Positions 13,153-27,782 of a stretch of 42,545 nucleotides of DNA are shown in pieces. Both the position numbers and the translations under genes were made by a program. The notes below the pieces were generated by a model. The model was given only the letters and a program-made list of their open reading frames with translations, was not told the origin of the DNA and did not search any database. Numbering within the stretch: position 1 is the stretch's first letter; every line of letters starts with the position of its first letter. The stretch spans positions 1-42,545 of the forward strand of contig JAFXDK010000083.1 in NCBI GenBank assembly GCA_017521805.1, read 5' to 3'. The DNA comes from Ruminococcus sp. (GTDB taxonomy: Bacteria; Bacillota; Clostridia; Oscillospirales; Ruminococcaceae).

Positions 13153-13563
13153 TCAGAAAAGGTCAGAATCTACCGAAACATCATCAGCAAAGTCGCCGGG
13201 GATAACTCCAACCATATCGCGTCCGCGGATTCCGTATCTGTCACGCATATTGTTCATATGCTTGTCAATAAGGTTTGATACCTGTCTCACAGATTTAATG
13301 CTTTTTACTTCCTTTGTGGGAGTATCCGCATCCTTACTGTGTATCACTATTGTTCCGCAGCCGAATAATCTCTGGAAAAACGGACGCTGAACACTTTTAT
13401 CAATAATTTTGTAGAGGTCTATTTCGTCCTCCTCGACATTGAAAAGACCTGCACGGGTTATAAATTTTGTGGGTGTAAGGTAATATCTTGTAAATGAAAG
13501 GGGCAAACCAAAAAGTGTACGTTTTTTATCAGTCCATACGTAATTTATTTCTTCTTTAGCCAT
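13153..13563 (-). CDS. Bacterial PH-domain protein
   Basis: A 136-residue protein with no signal peptide or clear membrane span. The core TRYYLTPTKFITRAGLF, then EDEIDLYKIIDKSVQRPFFQ and IVIHSKDADTP, matches the beta-strand pattern of bacterial PH domains (bPH2/YdbT-like): a Y-x-L-T strand followed by a 'basis of origin' loop and a C-terminal helix. The acidic tail (DFADDVSVDSDLF) is not part of the domain. GAAAGGAG precedes ATG. It is the first gene of a probable two-gene operon with the FkbM methyltransferase. Function is unknown; membrane-associated scaffolding is typical of relatives. Confidence 0.75.
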   Translation of the reverse strand: MAKEEINYVWTDKKRTLFGLPLSFTRYYLTPTKFITRAGLFNVEEDEIDLYKIIDKSVQRPFFQRLFGCGTIVIHSKDADTPTKEVKSIKSVRQVSNLIDKHMNNMRDRYGIRGRDMVGVIPGDFADDVSVDSDLF

Positions 13564-13605
13564 AACAATTCTCCTTTCGGCTTTGGAAATAACTTTCCTT
13601 ATACT

Positions 13606-13634
13606 ATTTTACCACAAAATCAGAAATAAGTCAA
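13606..13634 (-). promoter_or_regulatory. Promoter of the PH-FkbM operon
   Basis: Minus strand TTGACT (13629-13634), 17 bp, TAAAAT (13606-13611), about 45 bp upstream of the PH gene start. Confidence 0.65.
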
Positions 13635-13690
13635 CAGCTATTTAATTAGGAATTAATAAAATAATCGGGCGAAAAAAATTTAAAAGACAC

Positions 13691-13867
13691 AAAGGTTGGG
13701 ATTCTAAAGGGCGAAGCCCTTTAGCAGAGTCCAGAGACAGAGTCTCTGGCAGGGTGTGGGACAGCGTCCCACATAGCGTTCAAGCGCTCTGCAAGTGGGG
13801 AATTTTCAAACAGTCCATAGGACTGTTTGAAAAGAGGGGACGCTCTGCAAGTGAGAGCGTCCCCTTA
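13691..13867 (+). repeat. Multi-hairpin structured repeat, copy 1
   Basis: Non-coding and built from consecutive perfect stems: CTAAAGGGC/GCCCTTTAG (13704-13724), CCAGAGAC/GTCTCTGG (13731-13749), TGTGGGAC/GTCCCACA (13755-13773), a weak AGCG/CGCT stem (13775-13788), a 14-bp stem TTTTCAAACAGTCC (13803-13833) and GGGGACGCTCT/AGAGCGTCCCC (13836-13864). The first three have 3-base loops. A second copy lies at 26283-26470 in the same orientation, and the differing bases are mostly paired changes that keep the stems. It fills much of the gap between the PH gene and glmS. It is either a mobile palindromic element or a structured RNA. Confidence 0.9.
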
Positions 13868-13930
13868 TTTATGAACTAAGTTGACTTTTTCTACAAACTG
13901 AATCGAGCAAAAAATATCCGCACGACTATC

Positions 13931-13957
13931 AATTCTTAATTCTTCATTCTTAATTCT
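13931..13957 (+). repeat. AT-rich 27-bp dispersed repeat, copy 1
   Basis: AATTCTTAATTCTTCATTCT plus 7 bases, just before the glmS stop. The inverted copy at 24014-24040 matches 26 of 27 positions. Both copies lie immediately beyond the stop codon of a gene. Confidence 0.8.
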
Positions 13958-13960
13958 GAA

Positions 13961-15799
13961 TTATTCAACTGTTACGCTCTTTGCAAGATTTCTTGGCTTG
14001 TCAACGTCATAGCCCTTTGCCACAGATACGTAATATCCGAGAAGCTGGAGAGGTACAACAGAGAGGCTTCCTGCAAAATGAGGGTCTGTCTGAGGAATAT
14101 ATACTGTGAAATCAGCAAGGTCCTCCATGCTGTAATTGCCGTATGTTGTAAGTCCCATAAGTGACGCACCACGGCTCTTTACCTCTACCATATTGCTGAC
14201 TGTTTTTTCGTAAAGGTCGGGCTGTGTAAGAATACCAATTACAGGAATCTTATCTTCAATAAGGCTGATAGGTCCGTGTTTCAGCTCACCTGCAGCGTAT
14301 GCCTCAGAGTGAATATAGCTGATTTCCTTCATTTTAAGGCTTCCCTCAAGACCGATTGCATAGTCAATACCTCTGCCGATAAAGAATGCATCCTTGCAGC
14401 CTGCAAGCTTGTTTGCATACCACTGGATTCTCTCTTTATCTTCGAGTATCTTCTCAATCTTTTCAGGAATTGTGTTAAGCTCAGCAAGAAGCTCATCATA
14501 AACAGACTGCTCCATTTCACCTCTTGCAAGAGCAAACTGCATTGCAAGGAGATAACCTGCGATAAGCTGTGTGCTGTATGCCTTTGTTGTAGCAACTGAA
14601 ATTTCAGGACCTGCAAGGGTATAGAATACACTGTCAGCCTCTCTTGCGATAGATGAGCCTACAACGTTTACGATACCAAATGTCTTAACACCTGCCTCCT
14701 TGGACATTCTCAGAGCTGCAAGGCTGTCAGCAGTTTCACCTGACTGGCTGATGATGATAACAAGGCTGTTCTTTGCAAGCTTCATCTTTCTGTAACGGAA
14801 CTCGGAAGCAAGCTCAACTCTTACGGAAATTGAAGAAAATTCTTCGATAACGTACTGTACAGCCATACCAACGTGATAAGCAGAACCGCATGCTACAATA
14901 TAAATCTGCTGAATATTCTGCATTTCCTCATCTGTAAGACCATGCTCGCCGAAGTCAATTCTGCCGTCCTTTACAACAGAATTGATTGTATCCTTGATAA
15001 CCTTTGGCTGCTCGTGGATTTCCTTGAGCATAAAGTGCTCATAGCCGCCTTTTTCAGCAGCCTCAGCATCCCACTTGATTTCGACAAGTTCCTTTTCAAT
15101 TTCCTCACGGTCAATATCATAGAATGTAGCTGTACCCTTTGTAAGCTTTGCAATTTCCATATTTCCGATGTAGTATACATTTCTTGTATACTTAAGAACA
15201 GCAGGAACATCAGACGCAACGTATGTCTCGCCGCCTGTAATACCGATAATCATAGGGCTGTCCTTACGCGCTGTGTAAATTTCGCCGGGGAAATCATTGA
15301 ACATAACACAGAGAGCATATGAACCTCTGATACGAATCATTGCTCTTGCAATAGAATCAACAGGGCCCTGACCGTACTTCTTGAAGTAGTAGTCAATAAG
15401 CTTTACAGCAACTTCGGTATCTGTCTGAGAATTGAAAGTGTATCCGCTTTTTGTGAGCTTTTCTCTCAGTTCCTGATAGTTTTCAATAATACCGTTATGT
15501 ACTGCCACAACATTATTATCGTCGCTTGAATGGGGATGAGCGTTAAGAGTTGAGGGCTCACCGTGTGTAGCCCAGCGTGTATGACCGATACCGCAGCTTC
15601 CGCTTACAGCTTCGCCATCGTTTGTCATTTTCTTGAGAACCTCAAGCTTGCCCTTTGCCTTGATTACTGTAACGTCCTCAGAGCCGTCACGTACTGCAAT
15701 ACCTGCTGAGTCATAACCTCTGTACTCCAGTTTTGAAAGACCGTCAAGAAGAATAGGGGCAGCCTGGTGGTCACCTGTAAATCCAACAATTCCGCACAT
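13961..15799 (-). CDS. glmS: Glutamine-fructose-6-phosphate aminotransferase (isomerising)
   Basis: Makes glucosamine-6-phosphate from fructose-6-phosphate and glutamine, the entry to peptidoglycan amino sugars. The 612-residue protein starts MCGIVGFTG (Cys2 nucleophile), followed by LEYRGYDSAGIAV, IGHTRWATHGEPS and VHNGIIENYQELR. Two SIS domains follow, with VACGSAYHVGMAVQY, ISQSGETADSLAALR, EISVATTKAYSTQL and AYAAGELKHGPISLI; the C-terminus DKPRNLAKSVTVE is typical. GGAGG lies 9 bp before ATG. The gene is alone, with its promoter at 15934-15962. No glmS ribozyme core was found in the roughly 130-base leader, which instead has a hairpin at 15847-15878. Confidence 0.97.
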   Translation of the reverse strand: MCGIVGFTGDHQAAPILLDGLSKLEYRGYDSAGIAVRDGSEDVTVIKAKGKLEVLKKMTNDGEAVSGSCGIGHTRWATHGEPSTLNAHPHSSDDNNVVAVHNGIIENYQELREKLTKSGYTFNSQTDTEVAVKLIDYYFKKYGQGPVDSIARAMIRIRGSYALCVMFNDFPGEIYTARKDSPMIIGITGGETYVASDVPAVLKYTRNVYYIGNMEIAKLTKGTATFYDIDREEIEKELVEIKWDAEAAEKGGYEHFMLKEIHEQPKVIKDTINSVVKDGRIDFGEHGLTDEEMQNIQQIYIVACGSAYHVGMAVQYVIEEFSSISVRVELASEFRYRKMKLAKNSLVIIISQSGETADSLAALRMSKEAGVKTFGIVNVVGSSIAREADSVFYTLAGPEISVATTKAYSTQLIAGYLLAMQFALARGEMEQSVYDELLAELNTIPEKIEKILEDKERIQWYANKLAGCKDAFFIGRGIDYAIGLEGSLKMKEISYIHSEAYAAGELKHGPISLIEDKIPVIGILTQPDLYEKTVSNMVEVKSRGASLMGLTTYGNYSMEDLADFTVYIPQTDPHFAGSLSVVPLQLLGYYVSVAKGYDVDKPRNLAKSVTVE

Positions 15800-24631: not shown

Positions 24632-26266
24632 ATGCCTATTACAGAATTACTTGAAAGAAACGCCGATTTATACGGCAATGATATTGCTCTTGTGGAGGTA
24701 AATCCCGAAATAACGGAGAATCGCCGTGTAACATGGAAAGAATATAACCTCATTGAGCCTGCTCCCGAAAGCCCATACCGCCGCGAAATCACATGGGCGG
24801 TTTTCAACGAAAAGGCTAACAGATTCGCAAATATGCTCCTTGAAAGAGGCGTACAGAAAGGCGATAAGGTGGGAATTCTCCTTATGAACTGCCTTGAATG
24901 GCTGCCTATTTACTTCGGAATCCTCAAAGCAGGCGCATTAGCTGTTCCGCTGAATTTCCGCTATACAGCCGACGAAATCAAATACTGCCTTGACCTTGCA
25001 GAAGTTGATATACTTATGTTTGGTCCAGAGTTTATCGGCAGAGTTGAGGAAATTGCAGGAGAAATCAGCAAAAACCGTCTCCTTTTCTACGTTGGCGAGG
25101 GCTGCCCCTCCTTTGCTGAACACTACGACAGCAATGTTGCAAACTGCTCCAGTACAGCTCCTGAAATTGCCATTACAGACGAGGACAACGCGGCTATATA
25201 CTTCTCATCGGGCACTACAGGTTTCCCCAAGGCTATTCTCCACAATCACGAAAGCCTTGTACATTCTGCCCTTGTTGAGCAGAATCATCACAATCAGAGC
25301 CGCGAGGACGTTTTCCTCTGTATTCCCCCACTCTATCATACAGGTGCTAAAATGCACTGGTTCGGCAGTCTCCAATCAGGAAGCAAGGCTGTACTGCTTA
25401 AAGGCGTAAAACCAAAGTCAATTATTGAAACAGCTTCAAATGAGGGCTGTTCTATTGTGTGGCTTCTCGTTCCGTGGGCGCAGGATATTCTTGACGCTAT
25501 CGACAGAGGCGAAATAAATCTTGATGACTACGACCTCACCCCATGGAGACTTATGCATATCGGCGCACAGCCTGTTCCTCCGTCGCTTATTGCACGTTGG
25601 AAAGAAAAATTCCCCAAGCACCAGTATGACACAAACTACGGTCTCAGCGAATCCATAGGCCCCGGCTGCGTACATCTGGGCGTTGAGAATATACATAAAG
25701 TTGGCGCGATTGGCAAGGCTGGCTTCGGCTGGGAAACAAAAATTGCCGATGAAAACGGCAACGCTGTTGAGCGTGGTCAGGTAGGCGAGCTTTACGTTAA
25801 AGGTCCCGGAGTTATGACATGCTATTATCGCGATGAAAAGGCCACAGCCGATACACTCAAGGACGGCTGGCTTCTCACAGGCGATATGGCACAGGAGGAC
25901 GAGGACGGCTTTATCTTCCTCGTTGACCGTAAAAAAGACGTTATTATCAGCGGCGGTGAAAATCTCTATCCCGTACAGATTGAAGATTTCCTCCGTTCAC
26001 ATCCTGCTGTAAAGGATGTTGCAGTTATCGGACTTCCTGACAAACGTTTAGGCGAAATTGCAGCAGCTATTATCTCCGTAAAGGACGGCATGACCTGCAC
26101 AGAGGAGGACATCAACGCATTCAGCCAGAAAATGCCCAGATATAAGCGTCCTCATAAGATTATTTTTGCCGATGTTCCGAGAAATCCCACAGGCAAAATT
26201 GAAAAGCCGAAGCTTCGTGAAATTTACTGTGGAGAAAGCCTTGTTGCTTCACAGATAAAGAATTAA
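24632..26266 (+). CDS. AMP-forming acyl-CoA synthetase / acid-CoA ligase
   Basis: A 544-residue ANL-superfamily enzyme that activates a carboxylic acid through an acyl-AMP, usually to acyl-CoA. Motifs: YFSSGTTGFPKAILHNHESL (P-loop, near 190-209), NYGLSESIGPG (A5), GWLLTGDMAQEDEDGFIFLV (A7), DRKKDVIISGGENLYPVQIE (A8) and the catalytic Lys in NPTGKIEKPKLRE (A10). An uncommon segment, EYNLIEPAPESPYRREITW, extends the N-terminal region before the first core strand. The substrate (fatty or aromatic acid) cannot be assigned. RBS AAAGG. It stands alone; the multi-hairpin repeat begins 17 bp after its stop and no other terminator is visible, so the repeat may end its transcript. Confidence 0.9.
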   Translation: MPITELLERNADLYGNDIALVEVNPEITENRRVTWKEYNLIEPAPESPYRREITWAVFNEKANRFANMLLERGVQKGDKVGILLMNCLEWLPIYFGILKAGALAVPLNFRYTADEIKYCLDLAEVDILMFGPEFIGRVEEIAGEISKNRLLFYVGEGCPSFAEHYDSNVANCSSTAPEIAITDEDNAAIYFSSGTTGFPKAILHNHESLVHSALVEQNHHNQSREDVFLCIPPLYHTGAKMHWFGSLQSGSKAVLLKGVKPKSIIETASNEGCSIVWLLVPWAQDILDAIDRGEINLDDYDLTPWRLMHIGAQPVPPSLIARWKEKFPKHQYDTNYGLSESIGPGCVHLGVENIHKVGAIGKAGFGWETKIADENGNAVERGQVGELYVKGPGVMTCYYRDEKATADTLKDGWLLTGDMAQEDEDGFIFLVDRKKDVIISGGENLYPVQIEDFLRSHPAVKDVAVIGLPDKRLGEIAAAIISVKDGMTCTEEDINAFSQKMPRYKRPHKIIFADVPRNPTGKIEKPKLREIYCGESLVASQIKN

Positions 26267-26282
26267 TGTGACATCCCATTAG

Positions 26283-26470
26283 GCTGGGTTTCCAAAGGGC
26301 ACTGCCCTTTGGCAGAGTCAAGAGACAGAGTCTCTTGCAGGGTGTGGGACTGGTCCCACGCAGAGCAAAGCTCTGCGATGCCTTTAAGCGCTCTGCAAGG
26401 GGTGAATTTCGAAACAGTCCTGTGGGACTGTTTCGAAAGAGGGGACGCTCTGCAAGAGAGAGCGTCCCCT
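26283..26470 (+). repeat. Multi-hairpin structured repeat, copy 2
   Basis: Same order of stems as 13691-13867: CCAAAGGGC/GCCCTTTGG (26292-26312), CAAGAGAC/GTCTCTTG (26319-26337), GTGGGAC/GTCCCAC (26344-26359), an added GCAGAGC/GCTCTGC hairpin absent from copy 1 (26360-26376), TTTCGAAACAGTCC/GGACTGTTTCGAAA (26407-26438) and GGGGACGCTCT/AGAGCGTCCCC (26441-26469). The final stem is followed by TTTAAATTT. It occupies the interval between the acyl-CoA synthetase and rmuC. Confidence 0.9.
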
Positions 26471-26513
26471 TTAAATTTATACAGGAAACCAATACAAAAA
26501 ACGAAAGGTTATT

Positions 26514-27782
26514 ATGGATATACTTTTAACTATTCTTGCGGTAATCAATATCGCACTTCTGTTTTTTGCCATTATGATTCTGATGAAAATTGCAAAAACA
26601 AGAGGAACAGGAAAAAAGGAATTTTCCGAAATACAGAAAAAAGTCGATATACTGGGAAAAACTGCCGAAACGCAGAACAGGCTTATGCTGGAACAGCTGG
26701 TACGCATGAATGAATCCCTTGTATATCAGGTCAACAATTTAGGCGGAGAATTACGCCGTTCCAACGAGGCACAGCAGAAAAAGGCTGTTGAAGCTCTTGA
26801 AAAAATTGAAGCGGATATGAAAACTCTCGACCGTGATAATCGCGAAAGCCTCGAAAAGATTATGACTTCCAACACCGAAAGCATGGAAAAGCTCCGCCGC
26901 GAAAACAGCGAGAGCCTCGACAAGATAAATAATACCGTAAGCGAAAAGCTTCAAAAAACTCTCAACGACCGCATTTCCCAGTCGTTTGAAACCGTAAACA
27001 AGCGACTTTCAGAAGTATATGCAGGACTTGGAGAAATGAAAGCCGTAGCGTCGGGAGTATCGGATTTAAAAAAAGTCCTCTCCAACGTTAAAACCCGCGG
27101 AATCATGGGAGAAATCCAGCTTGGAGCGATACTTGCAGAAATTCTCGCTCCCGAACAGTATGGCGAGCAGATTGCAGTTATCCCAAATTCATCGGAGCGT
27201 GTGGATTTCGCTGTAAAACTCCCCGGCAAAGACGAAGACTGCGTATATCTGCCCATAGATTCAAAATTCCCTGGAGATACCTACGCAAGACTTGCCGCCG
27301 CATACGAAAAGGGCGATTCCACAGAACTGAAAATTGCCCGTTCCGCCCTTGAAGCAGAGATAAAACGCTGTGCAAAGAGCATCCGCACAAAATACGTAAA
27401 ACCGCCGTATACAACAGATTTTGCAATTCTCTTCCTGCCCTTTGAAAGCCTTTATGCCGAGGTTGTAAATATGGGGCTGGTGGAAATTCTACAGCGCGAT
27501 TTCCGCATTAACATTGCGGGACCGTCTACAATGGCGGCTATGCTGAACAGTCTGCAAATGGGATTCCGCACCCTTGCCATTCAGAAAAAAAGCGGCGAGG
27601 TGTGGAAAATTCTTGAAGAAGCCAAGTCAGAATTTGCCAACTTTGAAACTGTTCTGGAATCCGCAAGAAACAGGCTCAGAATGGCTGACAAAGACCTTGA
27701 AGCACTTATCGGCACAAGAACAAACGCTATTAACCGCACTTTGAAAAATGTGGGATTAGACTTAAAAAACAACGACAAATAA
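26514..27782 (+). CDS. rmuC: DNA recombination protein RmuC family
   Basis: A 422-residue protein. An N-terminal membrane anchor (residues 3-24, ILLTILAVINIALLFFAIMI) is followed by a long coiled coil to about 170 with near repeats such as LDRDNRESLEKIM, then ENSESLDKINN. A C-terminal RmuC nuclease-like domain follows: SNVKTRGIMGEIQLGAILAE, PGKDEDCVYLPIDSKFPGD and PPYTTDFAILFLPFESLYAE. RmuC limits DNA inversion and rearrangement at repeats in E. coli; the molecular activity is not settled. RBS AAAGG. Its start is 44 bp after the multi-hairpin repeat, with no clear separate promoter seen. A terminator follows. Confidence 0.93.
   Translation: MDILLTILAVINIALLFFAIMILMKIAKTRGTGKKEFSEIQKKVDILGKTAETQNRLMLEQLVRMNESLVYQVNNLGGELRRSNEAQQKKAVEALEKIEADMKTLDRDNRESLEKIMTSNTESMEKLRRENSESLDKINNTVSEKLQKTLNDRISQSFETVNKRLSEVYAGLGEMKAVASGVSDLKKVLSNVKTRGIMGEIQLGAILAEILAPEQYGEQIAVIPNSSERVDFAVKLPGKDEDCVYLPIDSKFPGDTYARLAAAYEKGDSTELKIARSALEAEIKRCAKSIRTKYVKPPYTTDFAILFLPFESLYAEVVNMGLVEILQRDFRINIAGPSTMAAMLNSLQMGFRTLAIQKKSGEVWKILEEAKSEFANFETVLESARNRLRMADKDLEALIGTRTNAINRTLKNVGLDLKNNDK

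What the first reader, a model, noticed from the sequence alone, without database searches (positions are those of the whole stretch)
13691..13867. Multi-hairpin repeat whose stems are kept by paired changes between two copies
The sequence shows a series of consecutive perfect hairpins, repeated at 26283-26470. Where the copies differ, both arms of a stem usually change together: CTAAAGGGC/GCCCTTTAG against CCAAAGGGC/GCCCTTTGG, CCAGAGAC/GTCTCTGG against CAAGAGAC/GTCTCTTG, and TTTTCAAAC/GTTTGAAAA against TTTCGAAAC/GTTTCGAAA. Compensating change argues for selection on structure, as RNA or as folded single-stranded DNA. The stretch CTCTGCAAG recurs within each copy. It is not a known riboswitch or attenuator class recognisable by eye.
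Basis: partly seen in the sequence, partly recalled or inferred. Interest (0 to 1): 0.75.

Follow-up and report, generated by a model that had tools for sequence, protein, structure and literature searches.

The report
Hairpin-rich mobile element targeting gene terminators
The repeat is a short mobile DNA element, probably moved by an IS1182-type transposase, that inserts at hairpins near gene ends, can leave a copy of that hairpin on both of its sides, and carries five hairpins of its own whose two arms change together.

Summary
The two window copies belong to a dispersed family: one query gave 66 blastn pieces in the window's own 2.5-Mb genome, and relatives occur mainly in records titled Ruminococcus or rumen Oscillospiraceae. 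On 72 distinct copies, 98.8% of stem cells pair, 21 of 46 pairs change on both sides, and the covariation score is 0.299 against 0.103 shuffled and at most 0.104 slid. The thing itself is a non-autonomous transposon (MITE). Better-preserved copies end in CAGNCTGTCGAAAAAG-type inverted repeats, the same ends as complete IS1182-family insertion sequences of the genus. The target is a terminator-like hairpin, and a whole stem-loop can be duplicated on both sides: 10 clean cases (6 multi-hairpin MITEs, 1 other MITE, 3 complete IS), duplication 21-38 nt, stem-loop 19-38 nt. Of 17 multi-hairpin copies with both ends, 6 show it cleanly and 2 in worn form. IS1182 elements and IS1182-type MITEs are known; IS1272 of this family deletes its target hairpin. 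Duplication of the hairpin was drawn by Wan et al. as a possible pathway; my searches found no report of it. What the internal hairpins do is inferred. Copy 1 keeps a clear right end only; copy 2 has no detectable ends.

The parts
13662..13900 (+). copy 1: whole MITE as inferred from the end repeats (degenerate left end, clear right end)
   Evidence: left subterminal AAAGACACAAAGG resembles L023 AAAGACTACAAAGG (read)
13662..13677 (+). copy 1: possible degenerate left terminal inverted repeat (11 of 16 to the consensus)
   Evidence: P 0.035 on shuffled flank; P 0.22 with the weight matrix (not significant)
13704..13724 (+). copy 1 hairpin A (CTAAAGGGC/GCCCTTTAG)
   Evidence: covariation helix 1
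13731..13749 (+). copy 1 hairpin B (CCAGAGAC/GTCTCTGG)
   Evidence: helix 2
13755..13773 (+). copy 1 hairpin C (TGTGGGAC/GTCCCACA)
   Evidence: helix 3
13787..13795 (+). copy 1 first CTCTGCAAG repeat
   Evidence: 8 short copies in the own genome lack hairpin D, joined across these repeats
13803..13833 (+). copy 1 hairpin D (TTTTCAAACAGTCC/GGACTGTTTGAAAA), two-way terminator-like
   Evidence: helix 4; the simple terminator scan did not call it
13836..13864 (+). copy 1 hairpin E (GGGGACGCTCT/AGAGCGTCCCC), overlaps the second CTCTGCAAG at 13843
   Evidence: helix 5
13885..13900 (-). copy 1 right terminal inverted repeat CAGTTTGTAGAAAAAG (14 of 16 to the consensus)
   Evidence: (0 of 2000 shuffled flanks as good), P 0.005
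26283..26470 (+). copy 2: core with the extra hairpin; no terminal repeats detectable on either side
26292..26312 (+). copy 2 hairpin A
26319..26337 (+). copy 2 hairpin B
26344..26359 (+). copy 2 hairpin C (GTGGGAC/GTCCCAC)
   Evidence: sequence
26359..26377 (+). copy 2 extra hairpin (CGCAGAGC/GCTCTGCG), absent from copy 1
26407..26438 (+). copy 2 hairpin D (TTTCGAAACAGTCC/GGACTGTTTCGAAA)
26440..26470 (+). copy 2 hairpin E

Best explanation
The repeat is a MITE of an IS1182-family insertion sequence. Shown here: most tested copies of the own genome keep a CAGNCTGTCGAAAAAG-type end on at least one side; complete IS1182 elements of the same genus have the same ends; and in 10 clean cases an entire stem-loop is present as a direct repeat on both sides of the element, abutting the ends. 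Inferred: the transposase recognises an extruded stem-loop (often a gene's intrinsic terminator), joins the element at the feet of the hairpin on the two strands, and gap filling then doubles the hairpin, so that the target-site duplication is about as long as the stem-loop. Also inferred: the internal hairpins are kept base-paired because they work as structures, most likely in the transcript, with hairpin D as a two-way terminator that keeps transcription in or out of the element and makes insertion at a gene end nearly harmless. Confidence: IS1182-type MITE 0.9; stem-loop-defined duplication 0.8; terminator role of the internal hairpins 0.4.
For: 66 blastn pieces of the copy-1 query in the own genome (71 candidates, 40 scored). 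Ends: weight matrix built from 24 ends of 12 elements, then tested on 27 other own copies: an end with P<0.05 on at least one side in 21 of 27 (left 9, right 16, both 4; about 1.4 expected per side), and in 30 of 65 copies from other genomes. Flanking duplication: 7 of 998 loosely defined convergent end pairs have a flanking repeat of score 20 or more, against 0.12 with shuffled partners; 6 of the 7 are multi-hairpin elements (L023, L091, L159, L162, L173, L187) and 1 (L059) is another 141-bp element. Of 17 multi-hairpin elements with both ends, 6 have such a clean duplication and 2 (L095, L097) a worn one (the 6 were also part of the matrix). Of 6 IS1182 copies with an end pair, 3 (L268, L269, L272) are flanked by an exact duplication of 28, 38 and 23 nt. 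In 10 of 10 the duplication holds one stem-loop, with 0-4 nt over on each side; 8 are identical and 2 differ by one base. Transposases: NF033551 at 403, 382 and 378 bits, cut-off 270 (the third, L104, is of a group without this end). A stem of 7 or more lies beside 57 of 121 end-like motifs, against 126 of 3000 random positions. Gene context: 78 of 84 elements (of 103) face a gene 3' end; divergent gaps hold 6 of 84, against 54 of 249 gaps without the element (p 0.002). 0 of 19 examined orthologues of the L091 neighbour gene carry the element; 13 of 19 have a stem of 9 or more within 64 nt of the stop codon. Covariation.
Against: With a strict end motif, 66 of 98 elements show no end on either side; copy 2 of the window shows none. 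Of 17 multi-hairpin elements with both ends, 9 show no flanking repeat of score 11 or more; L003 and L081 among them have hairpins on both sides, in L081 two different ones. Of the 5 own copies with both ends only L023 has a clean duplication. Of the 6 IS copies with end pairs, 2 (L264, L267) have no duplication and 1 (L266) is cut at the contig end; L267 carries two different hairpins. The own genome holds no NF033551 hit at E 1e-30 and only a 61-aa PF13751 fragment. No exact empty site was found. The rank correlation of duplication length with stem-loop length is weak (Spearman 0.55, p 0.10; Pearson 0.92 leans on one 38-nt case). Several R. flavefaciens copies sit in other surroundings, without these ends. 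An IS1182 element of Paracoccus, ISPse1, is listed with a repeat of 4 (PMC3281130, table passage), so long duplications are not general in the family.
Confidence: 0.82

Rival explanations
1. A structured regulatory RNA or RNA family (3' UTR element or attenuator) kept by selection for a cellular function, whose link to IS1182 ends is incidental.
For: Strong covariation; excess of G.T over A.C mispairs on the A-to-E strand, 35 to 8 by column x genome; several own copies start within 20 nt of a stop codon; many copies lack detectable ends.
Against: No significant bias of orientation towards neighbouring genes: 28 sense against 20 antisense in tandem gaps, p 0.31. Dispersed in many different gaps. 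0 of 19 examined orthologues of one neighbour gene carry it. Hairpins come and go as modules. Ends and hairpin duplications of a transposon.
Confidence: 0.12
2. The arms stay paired because quasi-palindromes correct themselves during replication (template switching in a hairpin), without selection for function.
For: Pairing is nearly perfect and both arms change to many sequences, for example hairpin D with 808 of 847 Watson-Crick cells in 77 distinct sequences.
Against: Such correction is blind to strand and should leave G.T and A.C about equally often; 35 to 8 was seen, 25 to 8 without the most affected column, though relatedness inflates this and by column it is 16 to 7 (p 0.09). The inner A-T pairs and most of the inner stem of D hardly vary while the outer pairs do, which asks for constraint or recent common descent of that part.
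Confidence: 0.3
3. A REP/BIME-like array of palindromes spread by a REP-associated tyrosine transposase (RAYT) or another single-strand transposase.
For: Palindromic modules in mosaic order; four loci hold two copies in inverted order (L139, L153, L171, L219).
Against: Inverted terminal repeats and target duplications are features of DDE transposition; the same ends flank DDE-type IS1182 transposases. RAYT genes were not searched for.
Confidence: 0.04

Closest known systems
IS1272 / TnSha1 (IS1182 family; PMC5678879: abstract, sections 22 and 24, first part of section 29; PMC4923244: passages)
   Same: IS1182-family transposase; about 16-bp ends; target is a hairpin, in some cases a confirmed terminator, with no sequence consensus.
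   Different: IS1272 and TnSha1 delete the target stem-loop (wholly or in part) and leave no duplication; here the whole stem-loop is doubled, as in pathway b of Fig 13 of PMC5678879 (legend read).
MITEPye1 of Paracoccus yeei (PMC11578231, passages)
   Same: MITE with IS1182-type ends and direct repeats, few copies, intergenic, predicted to fold into long stem-loops.
   Different: Other host; its internal sequence, repeats and target were not compared here.
MITEs of ISMac2 in Methanosarcina acetivorans (PMC3852290, table passage)
   Same: MITEs of 160 and 169 bp assigned to an IS1182-family element.
   Different: As I read the columns, direct repeats of 4 and 0, so no long duplication; not compared by sequence.
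BOX / RUP repeats of Streptococcus pneumoniae (PMC3049150, search listing; details recalled)
   Same: Modular, hairpin-forming intergenic repeats (recalled).
   Different: Not compared here.

Membership tests
IS1182-family MITE | terminal inverted repeats matching an autonomous IS1182 element | tested here: met
   CAGTCTGTCGAAAAAG-type ends in both; 21 of 27 own copies have an end on at least one side. Copy 1 of the window: right end only; copy 2: none
IS1182-family MITE | partner transposase of the IS1182 family in the genus | tested here: met
   NF033551 in 16 of 125 genus genomes, over the cut-off in 13; none in the own, fragmented assembly
IS1182-family MITE | short, multicopy, no transposase gene | tested here: met
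   clean-duplication multi-hairpin copies are 234-282 bp end to end; 66 pieces in the own genome
IS1182-family MITE | target-site duplication | tested here: met
   10 clean cases of 21-38 nt; 6 of 17 multi-hairpin copies with both ends; among 38 own flank pairs listed only L023 is clean
IS1182-family MITE | mobilisation in trans by the transposase | not testable with these tools
   needs a transposition assay
IS1272-type stem-loop replacement | target stem-loop deleted, no duplication | tested here: not met
   stem-loop present on both sides in 10 cases; the mode at copies without duplication is unknown
known Rfam RNA family | score above gathering threshold | tested here: not met
   0 matches in the window; 0 matches to E 1 on L023 1400-1800
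intrinsic terminator (hairpin D) | G+C stem followed by a T run | tested here: inconclusive
   T run of 4 or more in the 3' half of 65 of 77 distinct D hairpins, but the run pairs with the A run; the simple scan finds none in window 13500-14000, and the one it finds in 26200-26600 is not in the element

The most novel reading that the evidence does not exclude
A DDE transposon whose target-site duplication is set by secondary structure, not by a fixed stagger: the transposase cuts an extruded cruciform at the feet of both hairpins, so each insertion doubles a whole terminator. Its MITE carries a two-way terminator array of its own and so acts as a mobile insulator that spreads terminators between genes.
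Probability: 0.35. Interest if true: 0.72.

Novelty: new variant of a known kind. Interest (0 to 1): 0.52.

Why it matters
In the two papers on IS1272 and TnSha1 that I read in part, the target hairpin is deleted (PMC5678879, PMC4923244). Natural copies with the whole hairpin doubled, in several lengths, make the question of how these transposases read a DNA structure directly testable. The family also gives a large natural set of compensating changes in terminator-like hairpins, and shows one way in which new terminators may spread in Ruminococcus genomes.

Tried and rejected
Riboswitch or Rfam class: no match at gathering scores; in the lax window scan the four weak hits lie elsewhere. Exact empty site: the L023 flank has no full orthologue in 125 genus genomes; for L091 the upstream gene is conserved (106 of 124 genomes match, 20 loci fetched, one of them L091's own) but the gap is not alignable. 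Phage vehicle: 0 matches of the terminal-hairpin pattern in viral contigs. A sense orientation suggested by the first own-genome list (14 of 19 tandem copies by my reading) was not significant on 84 elements. Hairpin B was read one base out of register; it was recounted on the alignment. In one search hairpin C was taken as the right end in many rows; one search replaces its counts. In one search several loci were printed on the wrong side; one search replaces it. The denominator (998) is mostly chance motif pairs; one search gives a better one. One search counted some assemblies twice through wrong genome labels (37 to 8); one search recounts with mended labels (35 to 8; 34 to 8 if G018 and the JAGBGT assembly are one). 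Genomes behind G handles and named contigs overlap (L123 has the contig length of G007:C15), so numbers of genomes are approximate.

Full report
Observation. Copy 1 lies between glmS (13961-15799, minus; TIGR01135) and a small PH-domain gene (13153-13563, minus). Copy 2 lies between an AMP-binding acyl-CoA ligase-like gene (24632-26266, plus) and an rmuC-like gene (26514-27782, plus).

Family. The copy-1 query gives 66 blastn pieces in the own genome (2.54 Mb, 112 contigs; only 40 of 71 candidate places were scored); the copy-2 query gives 60 pieces (40 of 69 scored). With a query around L023, 17 of 40 genomes match at E 1e-5 (own genome included), all among the 24 of the same genus; none of 16 genomes from other families of the order does. 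Their titles are mostly Ruminococcus flavefaciens, Ruminococcus sp. and uncultured Oscillospiraceae or Clostridia, with some labelled Clostridium sp., one Anaerotruncus sp. and one MAG labelled Alistipes that may be misnamed. The same pattern has 0 matches in viral contigs.

Modules. The core runs A-B-C-D-E. Some copies have an extra hairpin after C. In others C is another sequence, or D is replaced by an unrelated stretch of about 75 nt. Eight own copies lack D, joined across the two CTCTGCAAG repeats, which fits a deletion between direct repeats.

Covariation. A first count with anchors outside the arms gave 808 of 847 Watson-Crick cells in 77 distinct D hairpins, against a shuffled maximum of 568, and 293 of 304 in 38 distinct A hairpins, against 278; rows were kept only if the left arm held AAA or AAAGG. 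In E, the scan pattern allowed any pyrimidine-purine pair at one position; 67 T-A, 50 C-G and 1 C.A were seen. On an alignment of 72 distinct elements that hold all five hairpins (103 elements have A and E, 74 of them D in the length range, 72 distinct), from about 23 genomes, 98.8% of 3299 cells pair, 354 cells differ on both sides (95 in shuffles), 21 of 46 pairs have such a change (13 in shuffles), and the covariation score is 0.299 against 0.103 shuffled and 0.046-0.104 slid. The number of further pair types does not exceed shuffles (50 against 48.7). The alignment is by sequence, but the structure was taken from one of its rows, so part of the excess over the slid versions follows from that; and the shuffle control does not correct for relatedness.

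Which strand. Mispairs on the A-to-E strand are G.T more often than A.C: 35 to 8 by column and genome, leaving out pair 156-164 at the loop; without the column that supplies 10 of the G.T it is 25 to 8. Counting columns only, it is 16 to 7 (p 0.09). This leans to an RNA constraint, but relatedness is not corrected for. No significant orientation bias towards neighbouring genes was found (28 sense, 20 antisense).

Ends and targets. Flanks of the better copies show CAGNCTGTCGAAAAA inverted repeats. With a weight matrix from 24 ends, 21 of 27 further own copies have an end on at least one side and 4 on both; among 65 copies elsewhere it is 30 and 8. With a strict motif, 66 of 98 copies show neither end, so many copies are worn, truncated or differently housed. 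Beside the ends lie hairpins: a stem of 7 or more in 57 of 121 end-like motifs against 126 of 3000 random positions; the control is not matched to gene ends. In L023 the 25-nt TAAGGACGGATACCCTCCGTCCTTT, a terminator-like hairpin, stands on both sides. Seven such cases pass, against 0.12 expected. Of 17 multi-hairpin elements with both ends, 6 have a clean duplication, L095 and L097 a worn one, and 9 none of score 11 or more.

Parent element. PF13751 transposases occur in 5 of 24 genus genomes; three long ones are IS1182 family by NF033551, one of which (L104) lacks this end. In 125 genus genomes 16 have NF033551 at E 1e-30, the own genome not. Among the 30 loci fetched there (some overlapping), 6 show an end pair, 1512-1625 bp apart; 3 of these (L268, L269, L272) have an exact hairpin duplication, 2 do not, and 1 is cut by the contig end. 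Seven more show an end-like motif on one side only, and 17 none; I take part of these for a second IS1182 group, untested. The parent's own ends carry hairpins just inside, such as AAAAAGTCCAG...CTGGACTTTTTTT in L103/L267, so protection by terminators may be a habit of the group.

Duplication and stem-loop. In 10 of 10 clean cases the duplicated stretch is one stem-loop with 0-4 extra nt per side; 8 pairs are identical, 2 differ by one base. Wan et al. (PMC5678879, section 29 part 1) drew three outcomes of attack on a cruciform: removal, as seen for IS1272; [quoted passage not shown] duplication of the loop. The present copies fit the second. Furi et al. (PMC4923244, passages) confirmed by RNA-seq that hairpins hit by TnSha1 are terminators, and saw deletion, not duplication. 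Both papers cite a review that some IS1182 members target palindromes; I did not read it. I recall that ISfinder lists variable, long direct repeats for IS1182; no call supports this, and ISPse1 of Paracoccus has 4 (PMC3281130, table passage). Searches brought up no description of this repeat or of whole-hairpin duplication, judged from listings and the papers named here; subscription journals are mostly outside that library.

Gene ends. 78 of 84 elements (of 103; the others lack flank or neighbour ORFs) face at least one gene 3' end; divergent gaps hold 6 of 84 against 54 of 249 gaps without the element (p 0.002; genes are simple ORF calls). At the L091 site 0 of 19 examined orthologous loci carry the element.

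Function of the cargo. Hairpin D keeps a G+C-containing stem, CAGTCC/GGACTG in most copies and other paired sequences in a few, between an A run and a T run, while its outer pairs drift in both arms; 65 of 77 distinct D hairpins have a T run of 4 or more. A two-way terminator would look so, but the simple scan does not call it in the window. This step is inference.

Verdict. A MITE of a known IS family (confidence 0.9 for that), with a target-site duplication that is a new variant as far as my searches show, and a strongly covarying hairpin cargo of unproven function.

Noticed in passing
L064, L067, L068, L070, L071 (own genome): Other short elements share the CAGTCTGTCGAAAAAG end but carry different cargo (several with GTAGGGG...-type hairpins); L068 and L071 are also flanked by similar terminator-like hairpins on both sides.
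   Followed up: partly
L023:1609-1683; L077 and L093 from 1501 (G017): A conserved stretch of about 75 nt, TTGCCCGAACGTGAGGCAGG..., replaces hairpin D in some copies; G017 has 17 matches to the query, those listed being to this part, and in L077 and L093 no A-E core is next to it. No Rfam match on L023.
   Followed up: partly
L139:2058-2585, L153:3037-3564, L171:2164-2687, L219:3105-3632: Pairs of copies in inverted order, E ends facing each other about 155 nt apart, with terminator-like hairpins between them in the two loci read (L139, L219).
   Followed up: partly
L025, L051, L054, L060, L062 (own genome): Hairpin A's GGGATTC starts 1-4 nt after the ORF stop of the neighbouring gene, with no left end repeat and no host terminator between; how this boundary arises is unexplained.
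   Followed up: no
L029, about 360-595: Hairpin A is interrupted by an unrelated inverted-repeat element of about 160 bp, a nested insertion.
   Followed up: no
L108, L109, L130, L198 (R. flavefaciens): Copies without the IS1182-type ends share other left sequences (..GAACCCATGAAC or ..AATCCATGAAT) and are followed by another hairpin family (GGGCGGATAATATCCGCCC-type); their mode of spread is unknown.
   Followed up: no
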